The notes beneath the pieces are model-generated. The model did no database searches and had not been told where the DNA came from. It saw only the letters and a list, made by a program, of their open reading frames with translations. 25,538 bases of DNA from a virus: the IMG/VR virus record IMGVR_UViG_3300030105_001704, positions 1-25,538 of that record; one strand, given 5' to 3'. Position 1 is the first letter of the stretch. Each line of letters begins with the position of its first letter. The translations under genes and the position numbers were made by a program. Below are positions 4,980-25,331 of the stretch, in pieces.

Positions 4980-5336
4980 TTAATCTTTATAGTGCCAGTA
5001 TGCAGGACCACCGAAGGCTACAACAGCTTCATAGTACTTTAAAGCTCTACGTCTACGTAGTGGCTTAAGCACCTTACTCATGAAGCTAGTCTGTCCTTCT
5101 ATTAGTCTAAGCATGTTGTTTAAGAAGACTCTATCAGCCTCCTCCTTGTCTAAATGTGTTAGTCCTACGTGGTACATCCAGTCGTGTACGTTACAAGCTG
5201 GTGTTATCTTTAAGCCATAGACGCTGTCTGGTACAAAGTCAAACTTAGCCTGTGCTGATCCGCACCCATTACATATAAGTTCTATCTCACCGTCTGAGGC
5301 GTTCTTATATGACTCTGGAGCAAACAACTTAATCAT
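4980..5336 (-). CDS. Phospholipase A2-like protein
   Basis: A 118-residue protein. Residues around the middle read CNGCGSA, then FDFVPDSVYGLKITPACNVHDWMYHVG and a following EADRVFLNNM helix. The CNVHDWMY stretch resembles the CxxHDxxY catalytic signature of phospholipase A2-like enzymes (His-Asp pair), with a downstream Asp-containing helix also typical. If active it would hydrolyse membrane phospholipids, helping lysis or entry. The ATG at 5,336 is preferred over an in-frame GTG at 5,369 because AGGAAG lies 7 nt upstream and it overlaps the stop of the holin-like gene. It neighbours a membrane-spanning gene, which fits a membrane-attack role. Activity is unproven. Confidence 0.5.
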   Translation of the reverse strand: MIKLFAPESYKNASDGEIELICNGCGSAQAKFDFVPDSVYGLKITPACNVHDWMYHVGLTHLDKEEADRVFLNNMLRLIEGQTSFMSKVLKPLRRRRALKYYEAVVAFGGPAYWHYKD

Positions 5337-5535
5337 CTTTCTTCTTCCTATTCCTAAAGCTCTGTACACCTAACACTACTGTAACACATGCAGCTGCGAA
5401 CACGCCTAAGTCTGCTAGTATGCTGGACCATAGCGTTAACTGTTGAGCATTAACGGTAATGCCTAACACTGTGGTTGACACTCCAGACACCATAGCCTTA
5501 ACCTGTGCTGGGTCTTGTATTAAATTCTTTATCAT
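5329..5535 (-). CDS. Small membrane protein, holin-like
   Basis: From ATG 5,535 the product is 68 residues: a helical N-terminus (MIKNLIQDPAQVKAMVSG), two hydrophobic stretches (VSTTVLGITVNA and LGVFAAACVTVVLGV) and a strongly basic tail (RNRKKKDD). Hydrophobic segment(s) followed by a charged C-terminus are typical of phage holins, which form inner-membrane holes. An in-frame TTG at 5,607 would add 24 residues; I prefer the ATG because the TTG has no clear Shine-Dalgarno and the extra residues resemble nothing I know. Its 3' end overlaps the phospholipase-like gene by 8 nt. The endolysin candidate lies 8 kb upstream, so the lysis genes are not adjacent. Confidence 0.5.
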   Translation of the reverse strand: MIKNLIQDPAQVKAMVSGVSTTVLGITVNAQQLTLWSSILADLGVFAAACVTVVLGVQSFRNRKKKDD

Positions 5536-5633
5536 CCTATTTACCCACTGCAAAGAAAGACCTTCTAAACGGAACTCGTAGATTGTAGATAGAGCTAGTG
5601 TTAGCAAAGTTTAACTTAGTAAACCACATAACA

Positions 5634-10251: not shown

Positions 10252-12222
10252 TTAGGGTTGTGCGGGTTGGTTGGTTGTGGCTCTCGCCTCGTCTGCGTCT
10301 TGCTTGCGGTCTTTCTGCATTAGCTCGACTACTTTCACTCTTCGTGTAAAGTTCTTTTCATCTTGGTCTCCGTCTGTTAGGTTGTTGGAGATTGCTAAGA
10401 TTCGTTTGTTCTGTAGCTCTACCGGTATAGCTCTAGTCTCGGCATCGTACTTAACAGCACGCGCTTGTGACTCAGCAGCTTGTCCCTCTAAGGCGTTAGC
10501 TTGAGACTGCTGTACTGCTAAGGCTACTGCTTGCGCCTGCTTAGCGGCTTCCTGATCCTCTGGACTAACCTCCCTAGACTGCTTCAGTAGGTCAACTACT
10601 TCTTCTCTGTTAGCTACGTTCATGTTAGCTACGATAGACTCTATCAATACTGGATAGGCTGCGTTATCAGGGCTCATTGTCTGTAACAGTTGGATGAGCT
10701 GACTGACTTCGTACTCACGAGCCATAGTGCCTAGACTAGAAGAGACGTTAAACTTGAAGTCACTAGCTGGGTAGTTGTCTGGGTCGTACTGCATGTACCG
10801 ATAAGCTGTACGCTCTATCAGTGGGATGAGGAAGTCGTCTTGAAAGTTGTTTAGTGTACGCTTGTGGCGCTTGATGATGGCACCTAGAGACATGCTAGTC
10901 CCTGCTGCTGTGCCGTTGTCGTTGATAGAGCCTGCAACACCTGTTGTGTCTACAGCACCCGTAGCCATCTGTAACATCCTGCCTAATGACTCGGCTTGTG
11001 CGAACGTTATCTGACTAACCTGCCCAAAGTTGAAAGGCATTAACGCATCTTTAGGATTGCCGTTAGTGATCACTGTCCTGCCTGGCGTTACTTTAGGATT
11101 CATGCCACGAGGCATCTTAGTACCGTCCACACCCATCATAGGATGCGCTGTAAGAGCTAATGCGTCGTTACGGGCACGCAACTCACTGTCTAATGCCTTC
11201 TGTATGCCATAGCCCTTCTCAGGAACTCCTCGGCCATACCACATAGTTGGTAGGATATCCCAAGCAAAGCCTACTATAGGTCTGTCACCCATCATGTACG
11301 GGTTTTCTTCAGCCTTTAGTATGTGTTCTCCGTTAAGTATGACTACAATAGCCTCAACATAGTCTGAACTAGCTGGTACTACGGCATCATCGTCCTGCAA
11401 CGCAGCTTCAAAGTCTGCAAACGGGTCGTCTTCGCCTTTCTCTTTGTCTTGTGTTAGCAATTCTCTAGGAACTAGGCCGAAATACTTAGTGATCCTGACT
11501 ACATTCTCTGGTTGTTGGACTAATCCTTGGTCTTTCTGCTTAACTGAGTAGCCACCACCGGCTACAACTACGTCTTTGTTGTACACACCCTGGTCTTGTA
11601 GGATTTGTACTTGATGTACTGGTATGTAGAAGCAATCTGAGCCACAACCTAGGCCATCGTCGATGCTTGTAGCTGCTGGGTCCATGCGAAAGTCTGCTGG
11701 GTGAATAGGCATAACGTCACAGACTACACGCTTAGTGGTTGTTACACCTACTTCAGTGGTTCCGTCTTCGTTTTGCACACTAGTGGGCACACGTTGTACT
11801 ATCTCGGACAATACAATCTCAGCAGCACCGTTACCGTAGATAGCACCGTTAAGGATAACCTCACTAATAGCTTTTCTAATCTTTCTACGCTTCAGGTCTT
11901 CGTCTAAAGTCTCACGAAGCAGTGCTACGTCAGCTCGCTCTGAATCACCTATGTTGTCTGTAACATCAAACAAGCTACCTCTGCCGTAGATGGCTTCTTC
12001 TACTTCCGCTACTGAAGATTCAACAGCTTGAGAAGTGTGAGGTGCAACAACTCGTGATCGTTCACTCTCTCTAGTTTTGTCTTCGGCTTTCCAAGTACCA
12101 CGCCAGATACGCTCATACTCTAAATGGCTTTGTTTAAAGTTGTTATCATAGAAGTCACCCCAGTCATTCATATGACTCATGACCCATGAAGCTAGACTGT
12201 CACCTACTATTAAATCTGCCAT
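10252..12222 (-). CDS. Portal protein
   Basis: A 656-residue protein directly after the large terminase gene. Features of portals include the N-terminal region (WGDFYDNNFKQSHLEYERIW), a central segment with PIVGFAWDILPTMWYGRGVP and GIQKALDSELRARNDALALT, and a Gln/Ala-rich helical C-terminus (QAVALAVQQSQANALEGQAA) expected of the barrel. The portal forms the dodecameric DNA channel at one capsid vertex and docks the terminase. I place the start at ATG 12,222, which overlaps the terminase stop as TAATG; an in-frame ATG at 12,255 would add 11 residues but has no Shine-Dalgarno and lies inside the terminase gene. Confidence 0.85.
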   Translation of the reverse strand: MADLIVGDSLASWVMSHMNDWGDFYDNNFKQSHLEYERIWRGTWKAEDKTRESERSRVVAPHTSQAVESSVAEVEEAIYGRGSLFDVTDNIGDSERADVALLRETLDEDLKRRKIRKAISEVILNGAIYGNGAAEIVLSEIVQRVPTSVQNEDGTTEVGVTTTKRVVCDVMPIHPADFRMDPAATSIDDGLGCGSDCFYIPVHQVQILQDQGVYNKDVVVAGGGYSVKQKDQGLVQQPENVVRITKYFGLVPRELLTQDKEKGEDDPFADFEAALQDDDAVVPASSDYVEAIVVILNGEHILKAEENPYMMGDRPIVGFAWDILPTMWYGRGVPEKGYGIQKALDSELRARNDALALTAHPMMGVDGTKMPRGMNPKVTPGRTVITNGNPKDALMPFNFGQVSQITFAQAESLGRMLQMATGAVDTTGVAGSINDNGTAAGTSMSLGAIIKRHKRTLNNFQDDFLIPLIERTAYRYMQYDPDNYPASDFKFNVSSSLGTMAREYEVSQLIQLLQTMSPDNAAYPVLIESIVANMNVANREEVVDLLKQSREVSPEDQEAAKQAQAVALAVQQSQANALEGQAAESQARAVKYDAETRAIPVELQNKRILAISNNLTDGDQDEKNFTRRVKVVELMQKDRKQDADEARATTNQPAQP

Positions 12223-13487
12223 TAGTACCCTGCTACCTCGTCGAGAGGTTCCCATTCATAGTTGTCGTACTCGTCCCAATCAACACCGTATATAGTGTTA
12301 ACCATCTGGTCGATGTACGCCAGCGCGTCTATCATGTCGTCATGTGTTAGCTTGTCGGGGAATTGAAACAGCTCATCTAAGAACTTTAACGTCCACTCAC
12401 CCTTGTTCAATCTAATCTTACCGTGTTCGAATCTACCTTCTAAGGCCCATCGAATACGCTGTGTCTTGTTCTGGTTGCCGTGTGTCAGGTCTTCTACGTT
12501 AAAGTAGTTACCGCGCTGACCCATCAAGTCTTTAAGTGGACTCATGATAGCCTGCTTACTAATACCCTGCTCTATGCCTACGGCTCTAGGCTTGTAACGA
12601 TCTACTAGGTTAAAGATGTGTTCAGCTGTCTCGTCAGTAGTCCATCTACCTGCCTTGATCTGCTGTACCCACCAGCCTGTCTCGTTAACCTTAACAACAG
12701 CTATGGCTGAGTTATCTCGATTCCCTTTACTTTTCGAACCAGACACTTCAAAGCCTGCTAAGTCACAAGCAATGTAGTATTCGCCTACATCTGGTTCGTT
12801 CTCTTCATAATGTATCCACTCTTCTTTGAATATCTCTGAGCCAGATGCTTCAAAACTAGCCATGTATTCTTGCTTAAAGGCGTAAGTAGACAGCTCTGCT
12901 TTAGCAGCATCTATCTCTTCCTTGTCGATGAATGGGTTATCATACGTGGTGTAGTGCCACGCCTTATAAGATGGATCACCTCCCGAGCTTGCTTTAGAGT
13001 ACAGTTCAAAGAAATGGTTTCTCCCCATAGGGGTTCCGATGAACATAGCGCCGCCTTTCCTATCAGAGAGTGCTGGGCGAATAATCAAAGACCAGACATC
13101 GGGCTTCATATCAGCATACTCATCTAACACTACGTACTGTAGTGAGACACCACGCATGGTATCAGGACGGTCACTACCTTTCAAGCTAATCCGACTACCG
13201 TTCATCAGTCTAACTTGGAGGTTATTTACATTTTCACCTACTCTTATAGGGGCTGTAGTGTCTAACATCATCTGCCACATGATGTCTCTAGCCTGTCCCT
13301 GAGTTGGTGCTATGTAAAATACATCGCAGTTTGGATGGTCTAAGGCTTCTGTAACTAGCTTATAACAAGCCTTCCTAGTCTTACCTGTTCGTCTACCTGC
13401 TGCTATTACTTTGAATCTAGCTGGGTCTGCCCAGACTTCTGTCTGCCAGGGTAGGAGCTGGAAGTCTAACGTAATGTCTCCAGTCAT
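12222..13487 (-). CDS. terL: Terminase large subunit
   Basis: A 421-residue packaging motor. The ATPase domain has Walker A GRRTGKT at 31-37, Walker B YVVLDE at 118-123 with catalytic Glu123, and a coupling motif around FIGTPMGR (149-156). The C-terminal RNase H-like nuclease shows Asp242 in YIACDLAG, an acidic VGIEQG strand, and the closing HDDMIDA motif with Asp383, Asp384 and Asp387. All key residues are present, so the enzyme should cut and translocate DNA into the prohead. Start ATG immediately follows the peptidase stop (TAAATG), and its own stop overlaps the portal start. Confidence 0.93.
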   Translation of the reverse strand: MTGDITLDFQLLPWQTEVWADPARFKVIAAGRRTGKTRKACYKLVTEALDHPNCDVFYIAPTQGQARDIMWQMMLDTTAPIRVGENVNNLQVRLMNGSRISLKGSDRPDTMRGVSLQYVVLDEYADMKPDVWSLIIRPALSDRKGGAMFIGTPMGRNHFFELYSKASSGGDPSYKAWHYTTYDNPFIDKEEIDAAKAELSTYAFKQEYMASFEASGSEIFKEEWIHYEENEPDVGEYYIACDLAGFEVSGSKSKGNRDNSAIAVVKVNETGWWVQQIKAGRWTTDETAEHIFNLVDRYKPRAVGIEQGISKQAIMSPLKDLMGQRGNYFNVEDLTHGNQNKTQRIRWALEGRFEHGKIRLNKGEWTLKFLDELFQFPDKLTHDDMIDALAYIDQMVNTIYGVDWDEYDNYEWEPLDEVAGY

Positions 13488-13850
13488 TTAGTACGTCCAT
13501 AAGACAGGGGCTGTGTTCCTATCGTCTACGTGTATGAAGTTACCAGCTACGCCTATGCCGTTAAAGCCCATACGCATTGCTGTGTTGATGATTCTGTAGC
13601 GTTCTACGCTGTTGGTGACAGCTATGTCAGCTGCTATACCCTGTGTGTGTCTACCGCCCTTAGCCTTACTAGCCTCTGCTGGGTGGCTCTGATCTCTGTA
13701 TCCAGACGTTATAGTGAAAGCAAACCCGCATCTATGTCGTAAGATGTCTAGCCTTTCTAGGAAGCTATACTGCATCTCGTTCTCACCTGTGTGTGTACAA
13801 TCAAACTCTCTAATGTCAAAGTATCTGAATGTTGCGTTGATGGAGTCTAT
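13488..13850 (-). CDS. M15-family peptidase (probable endolysin), likely AUA start
   Basis: Zn-dependent D-Ala-type peptidase fold. Counting from the first ATG (13,775), SGYR is at 24-27, zinc ligands His43 (GGRHTQG), Asp50 (AADIA) and His82 in FIHVDDR, with Asp84. These match the peptidase_M15_3 pattern, so it probably cleaves peptidoglycan cross-links during lysis. The open frame continues upstream of that ATG for 25 codons encoding FRYFDIREFDCTHTGENEM, the usual N-terminal segment of this family, yet contains no ATG, GTG, TTG or CTG. The best start is ATA at 13,850, with AGGTGA 6 nt upstream and an ATAG overlap with the preceding stop. If only standard starts are allowed, the gene is 13,488-13,775 (95 residues). 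Confidence 0.8.
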   Translation of the reverse strand: MDSINATFRYFDIREFDCTHTGENEMQYSFLERLDILRHRCGFAFTITSGYRDQSHPAEASKAKGGRHTQGIAADIAVTNSVERYRIINTAMRMGFNGIGVAGNFIHVDDRNTAPVLWTY

Positions 13851-14191
13851 AGCGTTTCACCTTCGATTATTCCGTATATCGTAAACGTAGCTCTGTTAGC
13901 TGTACTAGACTTAACGGCTATACTTCCTGCTGCATACCTACCTGATACGCCTAAGTCTTGTAGTAGGACTTCAGAGAGGTCTGTGGCTGTACTCTGCTTA
14001 GCTATCACTGTTGTGCTGTCCCATGTTGTACCGTCAACGTCATGGTATATCTCAGTGGCTACAGCGCCACCACCGTTGTTCACAACACTTATAGCTGTTA
14101 TGCGATAGGGCTTGTTGTCTGTTGGGCTAAACAGCAATGTAGCGTTTGTGTTAGATGGTTTAACTTGTCCTAGCTGCCTAGCCTTACTCAT
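13847..14191 (-). CDS. Small beta-rich structural protein, function unknown
   Basis: A 114-residue protein rich in Thr, Ser and Ala, predicted mostly beta (YRITAISVVNNGGGAVATEI, then WDSTTVIAKQSTATDLSE). No membrane segment or catalytic motif. The fold could resemble small decoration or head-fibre proteins, but that is speculative. Its start overlaps the 54-residue gene by 8 nt, and its stop region carries the AGGTGA sequence that serves the peptidase gene. It lies among packaging genes, not tail genes. Confidence 0.65.
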   Translation of the reverse strand: MSKARQLGQVKPSNTNATLLFSPTDNKPYRITAISVVNNGGGAVATEIYHDVDGTTWDSTTVIAKQSTATDLSEVLLQDLGVSGRYAAGSIAVKSSTANRATFTIYGIIEGETL

Positions 14192-14348
14192 CGTCTAAGT
14201 CCTTACTAAGGCTAAGAGCGTTAGCTAATGCTACAACAGTAAATCCGTCTTCTGACATCTCATCTTTTAGAAGATGTAGTTTACCTTCTTCAGACATCCA
14301 CTCTAATGTTTTCATGTAGCCTTTGTCTGTCATAGCAAACTTACTCAT
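14184..14348 (-). CDS. 54-residue acidic protein, function unknown
   Basis: A short complete gene: ATG at 14,348 and TAA at 14,184-14,186. The product begins MSKFAMTDKGYMKTLEWMSE and continues helical and acidic, ending in LSKDLDDE. Start and N-terminus (MSK) resemble the next gene's. It lies 30 nt downstream of the tRNA and overlaps the 114-residue gene by 8 nt. The overlap and clean frame support expression; nothing reveals its role. Confidence 0.65.
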   Translation of the reverse strand: MSKFAMTDKGYMKTLEWMSEEGKLHLLKDEMSEDGFTVVALANALSLSKDLDDE

Positions 14349-14378
14349 TGTCTAAGTCCTTATAACGTTAAAATTCTT

Positions 14379-14453
14379 TGGGGTGACCAGAGGGACTCGA
14401 ACCCTCGTAAAGCGAGTCACAGTCGCTGTCTTTACCTGTTAAGATATAGCCAC
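14379..14453 (-). tRNA. tRNA-His (GTG anticodon)
   Basis: A full cloverleaf on the minus strand. Acceptor GTGGCTA pairs with TGGTCAC (two G-U pairs); T8 and A9 follow; D stem TCTT/AAGA has a GG-containing loop; anticodon stem AGCGA/TCGCT closes the loop CTGTGAC, giving anticodon GTG; T arm GAGGG/CCCTC has loop TTCGAGT. The 3' end has discriminator C73 and an encoded CCA (14,379-14,381). C73 is typical of bacterial tRNA-His, but the encoded base at -1 is C, not the G usual for this tRNA. It is embedded in the late operon, so it is probably cut from the long transcript. Confidence 0.92.
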
Positions 14454-14464
14454 GCCAAAGAACT

Positions 14465-24007: not shown

Positions 24008-24217
24008 ATGAGTGATTGTAAGCACGGAACAATTAAGGGTCTTTGCTCAGTGTGTGATCGCAAGCCCGACACAGTAACCATATCGCGTGAGTGCGCTGAG
24101 AGGTCGCGAAGCAGAGCATCGTATTACCTTGAGGCTTCCTATAACACAGTGGTTGGGCCGGAAGCCTTGAAAGATTTCAATGAGCTGACAGAGGCGATGG
24201 AGAACAACGATGACTAA
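24008..24217 (+). CDS. 69-residue Cys/His-containing protein, function unknown
   Basis: The N-terminus (MSDCKHGTIKGLCSVCDRKP) has CxH ... CxxC, a possible zinc site; the rest is helical and charged (ISRECAERSRSRASYYLEAS). Two adjacent ATGs exist (24,005 and 24,008); the second has GAGG at a better 6-nt spacing. It overlaps the protease gene by 8 nt. No family is recognised. As it follows a terminator, its promoter must be within or after it, but none is clear. Confidence 0.65.
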   Translation: MSDCKHGTIKGLCSVCDRKPDTVTISRECAERSRSRASYYLEASYNTVVGPEALKDFNELTEAMENNDD

Positions 24218-25331
24218 ACAATACGAACTAACAGGCAACGCAGAACCACCAGTAGACCCACGCGACCACGACTACATCTCTCCGTTTATGCCGGAAGAGT
24301 TACCAGCATCGTTGGACCTACGCTTCAGCTGTGTAGACTTGGTCAACCAATTAGATCAGGACGCGTGTGTAGCTAACGGGCACTACTTCGATCTACACAG
24401 GAAAGTACCTAGCTTTGTACCATCAAGACAATTCATGCACAACTCAACTAAAGTGCTAGGTGGTTACGTTGGACAGTCGGGTGTTGTTGTACGTGATGGC
24501 TTGCAAGCACTGTCTAGTGTTGGCGTGTGTCGAGCAGCGTACTACCCATACAACAGCGAGTATAACAACACAGTCCCTGACGATGATGTCTACGAGCTGG
24601 CTAAGCCTCACACTATCAACGACTACGAGGCTGTCATACCAGTAGGACCACACAGAACTGAGCAGGAGAAAGTACATAACATCTGCTCAGCCTTGAACGA
24701 GGGTATGATAGTAGGCTTAGGCATTAGAGTTACATCGTCTATTCACACACTGACTGGACCTTGGCAACAGCATGACTATCAAGTTGAGAGTGATAACAAC
24801 ATAGCTATTGGCAGACACTACATGTACATCGTAGGCTACGACATGGCTACACGTATGTTCTTGTTAGCTAACTGGTGGGGTGAAGGGCATGGTGACGAGG
24901 GCTATTTAGGTTTGCCCTTTGAAGTTGTCAACTCACTACGCCCTGAAGCATGGTGTATCAGATACTTCAAAGAACAAGGTACGCCAGAACGTAGTGGTAT
25001 CTATAAGAACTTGTTAATGTCTAGTGCTTTCTCGGCTAGGTTGCAAGTAAGTGAGGCAATGCACGGCACAACCACTAACATCTGGGTTGGAGCTGTACTG
25101 CCTAGCGGGCAGACACTGATTAAGCACAGCCAAGAGGATGATTCATGGTTGCCTATTGAGCAGGGTTTAGTTCCTTACTTAACAGACTATCCACTCAAGA
25201 AAGTTAACATGCTTAGTCTAGTGACGTATCGACCAGGCTTCCGTGATGCGTTTGCAGGTACAGAGTTCTATGCTGGCTACGGTGACACGGCTGCGTCTAT
25301 GTCTTACAATAAAGTATGGACAATAACTTAG
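24210..25331 (+). CDS. Papain-like (C1-type) cysteine protease
   Basis: A 373-residue protein. Papain-type elements appear in order: a start-of-domain LPASLDLR (31-38), NQLDQDACVAN with oxyanion Gln47 and nucleophile Cys53 at the exact papain spacing, the catalytic His203 in GRHYMYIVGYD, and Asn221 in LANWWGEGHGDEGYLGLPFE (equivalent to papain's NSWG). The full catalytic set is therefore present. The last ~115 residues form a beta-rich domain of unknown role. There is no signal peptide, so it probably acts in the host cytoplasm, or in the virion. Placement in the early/replication arm argues for host modification rather than head maturation. GGAG lies 7 nt upstream. Confidence 0.8.
   Translation: MTKQYELTGNAEPPVDPRDHDYISPFMPEELPASLDLRFSCVDLVNQLDQDACVANGHYFDLHRKVPSFVPSRQFMHNSTKVLGGYVGQSGVVVRDGLQALSSVGVCRAAYYPYNSEYNNTVPDDDVYELAKPHTINDYEAVIPVGPHRTEQEKVHNICSALNEGMIVGLGIRVTSSIHTLTGPWQQHDYQVESDNNIAIGRHYMYIVGYDMATRMFLLANWWGEGHGDEGYLGLPFEVVNSLRPEAWCIRYFKEQGTPERSGIYKNLLMSSAFSARLQVSEAMHGTTTNIWVGAVLPSGQTLIKHSQEDDSWLPIEQGLVPYLTDYPLKKVNMLSLVTYRPGFRDAFAGTEFYAGYGDTAASMSYNKVWTIT

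What the first reader, a model, noticed from the sequence alone, without database searches (positions are those of the whole stretch)
13488..13850. Endolysin-like gene apparently starting with AUA
The conserved N-terminal segment of M15_3 peptidases (YFDIREFDCTHTGENEM) is encoded upstream of the first ATG, in an open stretch of 25 codons free of ATG, GTG, TTG and CTG. An ATA at 13,850 has AGGTGA, a 6-base match to the anti-Shine-Dalgarno, exactly 6 nt upstream, and forms an ATAG overlap with the preceding stop where neighbours have ATGA or TAATG. A rare AUA start would lower lysis-enzyme synthesis. A sequencing error of ATG to ATA, or -1 frameshifting from the upstream gene, would also explain it.
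Basis: partly seen in the sequence, partly recalled or inferred. Interest (0 to 1): 0.65.

Follow-up and report, generated by a model that had tools for sequence, protein, structure and literature searches.

The report
Phage lysis enzyme starting at AUA
In this uncultured phage the gene for a cell-wall-cutting lysis enzyme has none of the usual start codons and most likely starts at the rare weak codon AUA; a related phage genome has the same arrangement, so it is not a sequencing slip, but no experiment has yet shown where the protein begins.

Summary
In the M15_3 lysin frame (13488-13850, minus strand) there is no ATG, GTG, TTG or CTG between the in-frame TGA (13859-13857) and the ATG at 13775. 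ATA 13850 lies 6 nt after AGGTGA and overlaps the upstream TAG. A sequencing error is very unlikely: the only close relative found (L001, 94% DNA identity, with its own separate insertions) has the same ATA, SD-like site and A-TAG overlap, and also lacks a canonical start. The other 182 distinct family members found all have ATG (114), GTG (57) or TTG (11) within 12 codons of the conserved YF..EF.C motif. Codons 8-25 are evidently translated: 6 family-conserved positions are kept, with 1 difference in 54 nt against about 11 expected if neutral. So starting only at ATG 13775 is unlikely. No slippery site can join the upstream gene to this frame. Best explanation: AUA initiation, coupled to termination of the upstream gene, from a GAAGGNGA ribosome-binding module that relatives also use, some with TTG at nearly the same spacing. 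SD strength is weak evidence, since the upstream protein's codons produce it by chance. An added short product from ATG 13775 is not excluded. AUA starts are known in bacterial genes; this would be a new phage case. Nothing here measures expression.

The parts
13488..13850 (-). M15_3 peptidase / phage endolysin-like gene, 120 codons counted from ATA, plus stop
   Evidence: PF08291 E=4.4e-10; PHROG 894 endolysin E=5.8e-25; 41 of 41 family-conserved positions kept
13848..13850 (-). ATA, proposed start codon; overlaps the upstream TAG
   Evidence: Only third-position near-cognate at good SD spacing; same in L001
13857..13862 (-). AGGTGA, Shine-Dalgarno-like site 6 nt upstream of ATA, inside the IEGE codons of the upstream gene
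   Evidence: anti-SD duplex -8.5 kcal/mol in the window, -7.9 in L001; GAAGGNGA module conserved before lysin starts in relatives
13857..13859 (-). In-frame TGA that closes the lysin frame upstream (GGA in L001)
13830..13847 (-). Lysin codons 2-7, fast-changing and predicted disordered
   Evidence: 6 of 18 nt differ from L001; residues 1-6 pLDDT below 50
13776..13829 (-). Lysin codons 8-25, conserved N-terminal segment FRYFDIREFDCTHTGENE
   Evidence: 1 of 54 nt differs from L001, neutral expectation 11, P about 1.6e-4; family-conserved F11 F16 C18 T21 G22 N24
13773..13775 (-). First canonical in-frame ATG (codon 26), possible internal start of a 95-residue product
   Evidence: AGGTGA 7 nt upstream, -8.4 kcal/mol, but that strength is expected 38% of the time from protein coding alone
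13847..14191 (-). Upstream 114-aa gene of unknown function, ending ...IIEGETL, carrying the lysin SD
   Evidence: Found only in L001 besides the window
12222..13487 (-). Terminase large subunit directly downstream
   Evidence: PF03237 and PF17289

Best explanation
The lysin is translated from AUA at 13850, decoded by initiator fMet-tRNA through a third-position mismatch. Ribosomes finishing the upstream 114-aa gene stop at TAG, which overlaps the AUA by two bases, and re-initiate there with help from the Shine-Dalgarno-like GAAGGTGA inside that gene's last codons. The product is about 120 residues and includes the conserved YF..EF.C segment. Shown by sequence: no canonical start, ATA and SD placement, the same layout in a second genome, and conservation of codons 8-25. 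Inferred: actual initiation at AUA, coupling, and a reduced lysin yield.
For: No ATG, GTG, TTG or CTG from the in-frame TGA to codon 26. L001, 94% identical DNA but with an ORF between TerL and portal and without the window's tRNA-His segment, has the same ATA and A-TAG overlap and no ATG, GTG or TTG from its upstream stop at codon -15 to codon 26. All 182 other distinct family genes have a canonical start near the conserved motif, so a start is expected here. Codons 8-25 keep the family pattern and show 1 nt difference in 54 against 11 expected if neutral. Whole gene under constraint: dN 0.035, dS 0.244. The GAAGGNGA module sits just upstream of lysin starts in relatives; several use TTG 8 nt after AAGG where the window has ATA 9 nt after it. 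AUA starts with strong SD sites are documented for S. aureus infC and ccpN, with reporters at about 10-30% of AUG efficiency (PMC13009471).
Against: The SD strength and the TA of ATA are explained by upstream gene coding (IEGE codons and the TAG stop), so their conservation is not independent support. Codons 2-7 diverge freely, so nothing at protein level pins the start to codon 1. Only one close relative exists in the collections searched. No expression or protein data. The host and its anti-SD are unknown; the bacterial consensus was used.
Confidence: 0.62

Rival explanations
1. Dual start: a little full-length lysin from AUA plus a 95-residue product from AUG 13775, which has its own SD; the ratio could tune lysis.
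For: AGGTGA 7 nt before ATG 13775 in both genomes, -8.4 kcal/mol. Endolysin genes giving two products from internal starts are known (PMC4777826, PMC9430671).
Against: Synonymous coding of the conserved TGENE segment gives such an SD 38% of the time. Codon 26 is Ile (ATA or ATT) in about 20 of the viral relatives, including the L002 and L005 groups, so it is not a family feature. Known cases yield a cell-wall-binding domain; this one would yield most of the catalytic domain without its N-terminal element.
Confidence: 0.15
2. Translation starts only at ATG 13775; the upstream coding segment is a silent remnant.
For: Canonical ATG with good SD; all predicted zinc ligands (H68, D75, H107) lie downstream; PF08291 still matches the shorter form (E=1.2e-9).
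Against: Codons 8-25 keep all six family-conserved residues in both genomes and show 1 change in 54 nt where about 11 are expected if untranslated. The model has this segment ordered, mean pLDDT above 80.
Confidence: 0.1
3. A -1 frameshift near the end of the upstream gene makes a fusion protein.
For: The lysin frame is -1 to the upstream gene; in L001 the frames overlap for about 15 codons.
Against: In the window TGA 13859 confines the shift to GAA ACG CTA TAG, which has no X XXY YYZ slippery heptamer and poor re-pairing at each position; the sequence is not conserved there with L001 (GAA TCG TTA TAG).
Confidence: 0.05
4. Initiation at another near-cognate codon, such as ATC (codon 4 in the window, codon 3 in L001).
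For: ATC occurs in both genomes and can be aligned if paired one-codon indels are allowed.
Against: It is 15 nt (window) or about 12 nt (L001) from the SD, too far for usual spacing; positions differ between the genomes.
Confidence: 0.04
5. Sequencing or assembly error, or a start recently lost in a decaying gene.
For: Single metagenome contig; reads not available.
Against: The same ATA in an independently assembled relative; no start in any frame nearby; gene constrained (dN/dS about 0.14) with 41 of 41 conserved positions kept.
Confidence: 0.04

Closest known systems
AUA start codons of S. aureus infC, ccpN and citZ (PMC13009471)
   Same: AUA used as start with a strong SD; weak initiation, about 10-30% of AUG in reporters for ccpN and citZ
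   Different: Bacterial genes shown by ribosome profiling; here a phage lysin, start inferred from sequence only, overlapping the upstream stop
M15_3 peptidase endolysins of marine phages, e.g. carboxypeptidase of Pseudoalteromonas phage H105/1 (HM588722, 60% identity)
   Same: Same enzyme family and conserved N-terminal YF..EF.C..TGEN segment
   Different: The H105/1 gene starts at ATG immediately before RYF; the window gene has no canonical start and a longer N-terminus
TTG-start lysins of related uncultured phages (L058, L114, L119, L127)
   Same: GAAGGAGA module at the end of the upstream gene, start 8 nt after AAGG
   Different: TTG rather than ATA; the upstream gene is the small terminase, not the 114-aa gene
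Two-product endolysin genes (CTP1L PMC4777826; survey PMC9430671)
   Same: In-frame internal ATG with an SD-like site
   Different: Those yield a C-terminal binding domain; here the internal product would be most of a single catalytic domain

Membership tests
M15_3 peptidase (PF08291) / phage endolysin (PHROG 894) | Significant profile match above the curated cut-off | tested here: met
   PF08291 40.1 bits against cut-off 23.2; PHROG 894 89 bits
M15_3 peptidase (PF08291) / phage endolysin (PHROG 894) | Metal-ligand motif HxxGxAxD...H and family-conserved positions | tested here: met
   HTQGIAAD and FIHVD present; 41 of 41 positions conserved at 95% or more are kept
M15_3 peptidase (PF08291) / phage endolysin (PHROG 894) | M15-like fold | tested here: inconclusive
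   Model pLDDT 83; best PDB match is Zn DD-peptidase 1lbu, probability 1.00 but E=1.7e-3, TM 0.63 by query
M15_3 peptidase (PF08291) / phage endolysin (PHROG 894) | Peptidoglycan hydrolysis and role in lysis | not testable with these tools
   Needs an enzyme assay
AUA-initiated bacterial gene | No canonical start available for a conserved coding segment | tested here: met
AUA-initiated bacterial gene | ATA with SD conserved between related genomes | tested here: inconclusive
   Conserved in L001, but only one close relative, and upstream gene coding constrains the same bases
AUA-initiated bacterial gene | Initiation at AUA shown by profiling, N-terminal sequencing or reporter | not testable with these tools
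   No experimental data
Programmed -1 frameshift fusion | Slippery heptamer in the frame overlap | tested here: not met
   Overlap confined to GAA ACG CTA TAG, by inspection
Two-product endolysin | Internal in-frame start with SD conserved across relatives | tested here: not met
   Codon 26 is Ile in about 20 relatives and SD energy there ranges from -9.2 to -1.5 kcal/mol

The most novel reading that the evidence does not exclude
A phage lineage keeps a lysis enzyme under an obligate AUA start coupled to an inserted upstream gene, giving deliberately low full-length lysin while a strong internal AUG makes a second, shorter form: a start-codon-based two-product lysis timer.
Probability: 0.1. 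Interest if true: 0.7.

Novelty: new member of a known kind. Interest (0 to 1): 0.42.

Why it matters
Gene callers that allow only ATG, GTG and TTG would cut 25 residues, most of them conserved, from this enzyme. A natural AUA start on a phage lysis gene, kept in two genomes, would extend the short list of natural AUA starts to phages and offers a direct test of weak initiation as a lysis-dose control. My literature searches (held open-access papers only) found no phage example, which is weak evidence of absence.

Tried and rejected
Named phage records: no DNA match to the region and no protein match to the 114-aa gene. Further close relatives: searches with the 114-aa protein, TerL and two DNA patterns gave only L001 again, L083 (which begins inside the lysin's C-terminal half and lacks the start), and unrelated chance pattern matches L260 and L262-L268. 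Genome collection: one distant MAG relative only. Altered initiator tRNA: the window encodes only tRNA-His. Genome-wide AUA use: every other gene I listed in the window has a canonical start available. SD strength as proof of AUA: rejected, because upstream coding explains it. The paper on start efficiency of all 64 codons that I tried by DOI was not held in the library. The PDB sequence search found no homologue at E 0.01.

Full report
OBSERVATION. The window is a 25,538-base uncultured virus record. On the minus strand the lysin frame runs from 13850 to 13488. Upstream it is closed by TGA 13859-13857; downstream the first ATG is codon 26 at 13775. Codons 1-25 hold no ATG, GTG, TTG or CTG. 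ATA 13850 follows AGGTGA by 6 nt and shares TA with the TAG that ends the upstream 114-aa gene. All other genes I listed in the window have a canonical start.

NOT A SEQUENCING ERROR. The only close relative found in IMG/VR is L001 (90% lysin protein identity; 94% DNA over the region). It is a different virus: it has a 181-aa ORF between TerL and portal that the window lacks, and lacks a 277-base segment with a tRNA-His that the window has. It has the same ATA and the same A-TAG overlap, and no ATG, GTG or TTG from its upstream stop (codon -15) to codon 26. The same error arising twice is implausible, and no start exists in any frame nearby that an indel could hide.

THE FAMILY EXPECTS A START HERE. 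I collected 184 distinct lysin genes from about 240 matching sequences. Within 12 codons of the conserved YF..EF.C motif, 114 have ATG, 57 have GTG but no ATG, 11 have only TTG, and 2 have none: the window and L001. The counts take the best start available, so they lean towards ATG, and relatives are not independent. Weak starts are common in this gene. In 77 loci with the adjacent TerL assessable, no nearby ATG was available for 46 lysins and 22 TerL genes.

CODONS 8-25 ARE TRANSLATED. Window and L001 differ at 1 of 54 nt (synonymous) in codons 8-25, against about 11 expected at the gene's synonymous rate (P about 1.6e-4), and at 6 of 18 nt in codons 2-7 (Fisher P 7e-4). RNA-level constraint could in principle contribute. 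Positions F11, F16, C18, T21, G22 and N24 are conserved at 95% or more across the family and kept here (the motif filter helped select F11, F16 and C18). The AlphaFold model is ordered over this segment and disordered over residues 1-6. The start therefore lies between the TGA and about codon 8.

WHICH CODON. In that interval the window offers two third-position near-cognates, ATA (codon 1) and ATC (codon 4). ATA has a normal SD spacing, ATC does not. A DNA alignment shows that the ATYGAAGGNGA module (protein I-E-G-E) at the end of the upstream gene is shared with relatives, where the upstream gene is the small terminase. Several relatives start at TTG 8 nt after AAGG; the window and L001 have ATA 9 nt after it. 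In this lineage the small terminase lacks the IEGE tail and the 114-aa gene carries it. I infer that the 114-aa gene was inserted just upstream of the lysin ribosome-binding module.

LIMITS. The SD strength carries little weight on its own: random synonymous coding of IIEGETL yields as strong an SD at this spot 74% of the time, and coding of TGENE yields an SD as strong as that before ATG 13775 38% of the time. The conservation of ATA itself is partly forced by the upstream stop. So AUA is reached mainly by exclusion, plus position and one relative.

ALTERNATIVES. Starting only at ATG 13775 conflicts with the conservation of codons 8-25. A dual start remains possible, but codon 26 is Ile in about 20 relatives. 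A -1 frameshift would have to occur within GAA ACG CTA TAG, which has no slippery heptamer. An altered initiator tRNA is not encoded in the window.

COMPARISON. AUA starts with strong SD sites are documented for S. aureus infC and ccpN, with reporters giving roughly 10-30% of AUG yield for ccpN and citZ (PMC13009471). Two-product endolysins are documented (PMC4777826, PMC9430671). I found no report of an AUA start on a phage lysis gene in the papers held, which is a limited search. The enzyme itself is an ordinary M15_3 peptidase of the endolysin type.

VERDICT. A real, shared absence of a canonical start, most likely solved by AUA initiation coupled to the upstream stop. A new member of a known kind, of moderate interest, needing one reporter or N-terminal peptide experiment.

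Noticed in passing
14192-14464 (-): 277-base segment absent from L001, between the small terminase and the 114-aa gene; it holds a tRNA-His (14379-14453) and a roughly 57-codon ORF from ATG 14348 by inspection, flanked by near-identical AAGGACTTAGACRATGAGTAAG copies, suggesting insertion or duplication at the repeat.
   Followed up: partly
L001:4610-5155: 181-aa ORF between TerL and portal, absent from the window; looks by eye like an HNH-type homing endonuclease; not searched against a family library.
   Followed up: no
13847-14191 (-): 114-aa gene with no family or phage database match, found only in L001; its C-terminal IEGE tail matches the small-terminase tail of relatives, suggesting insertion just upstream of the lysin ribosome-binding module.
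   Followed up: partly
4980-5336 (-): Protein with CNVHDWMYHVG, resembling the DUF1353 region (E=1.6e-4, just below the curated cut-off) and by eye a phospholipase A2-like CxxHD motif, next to a small holin-like membrane protein at 5329-5607.
   Followed up: partly
24210-25331 (+): Papain-family cysteine peptidase (PF00112, just above cut-off) encoded on the plus strand downstream of the replication genes.
   Followed up: no
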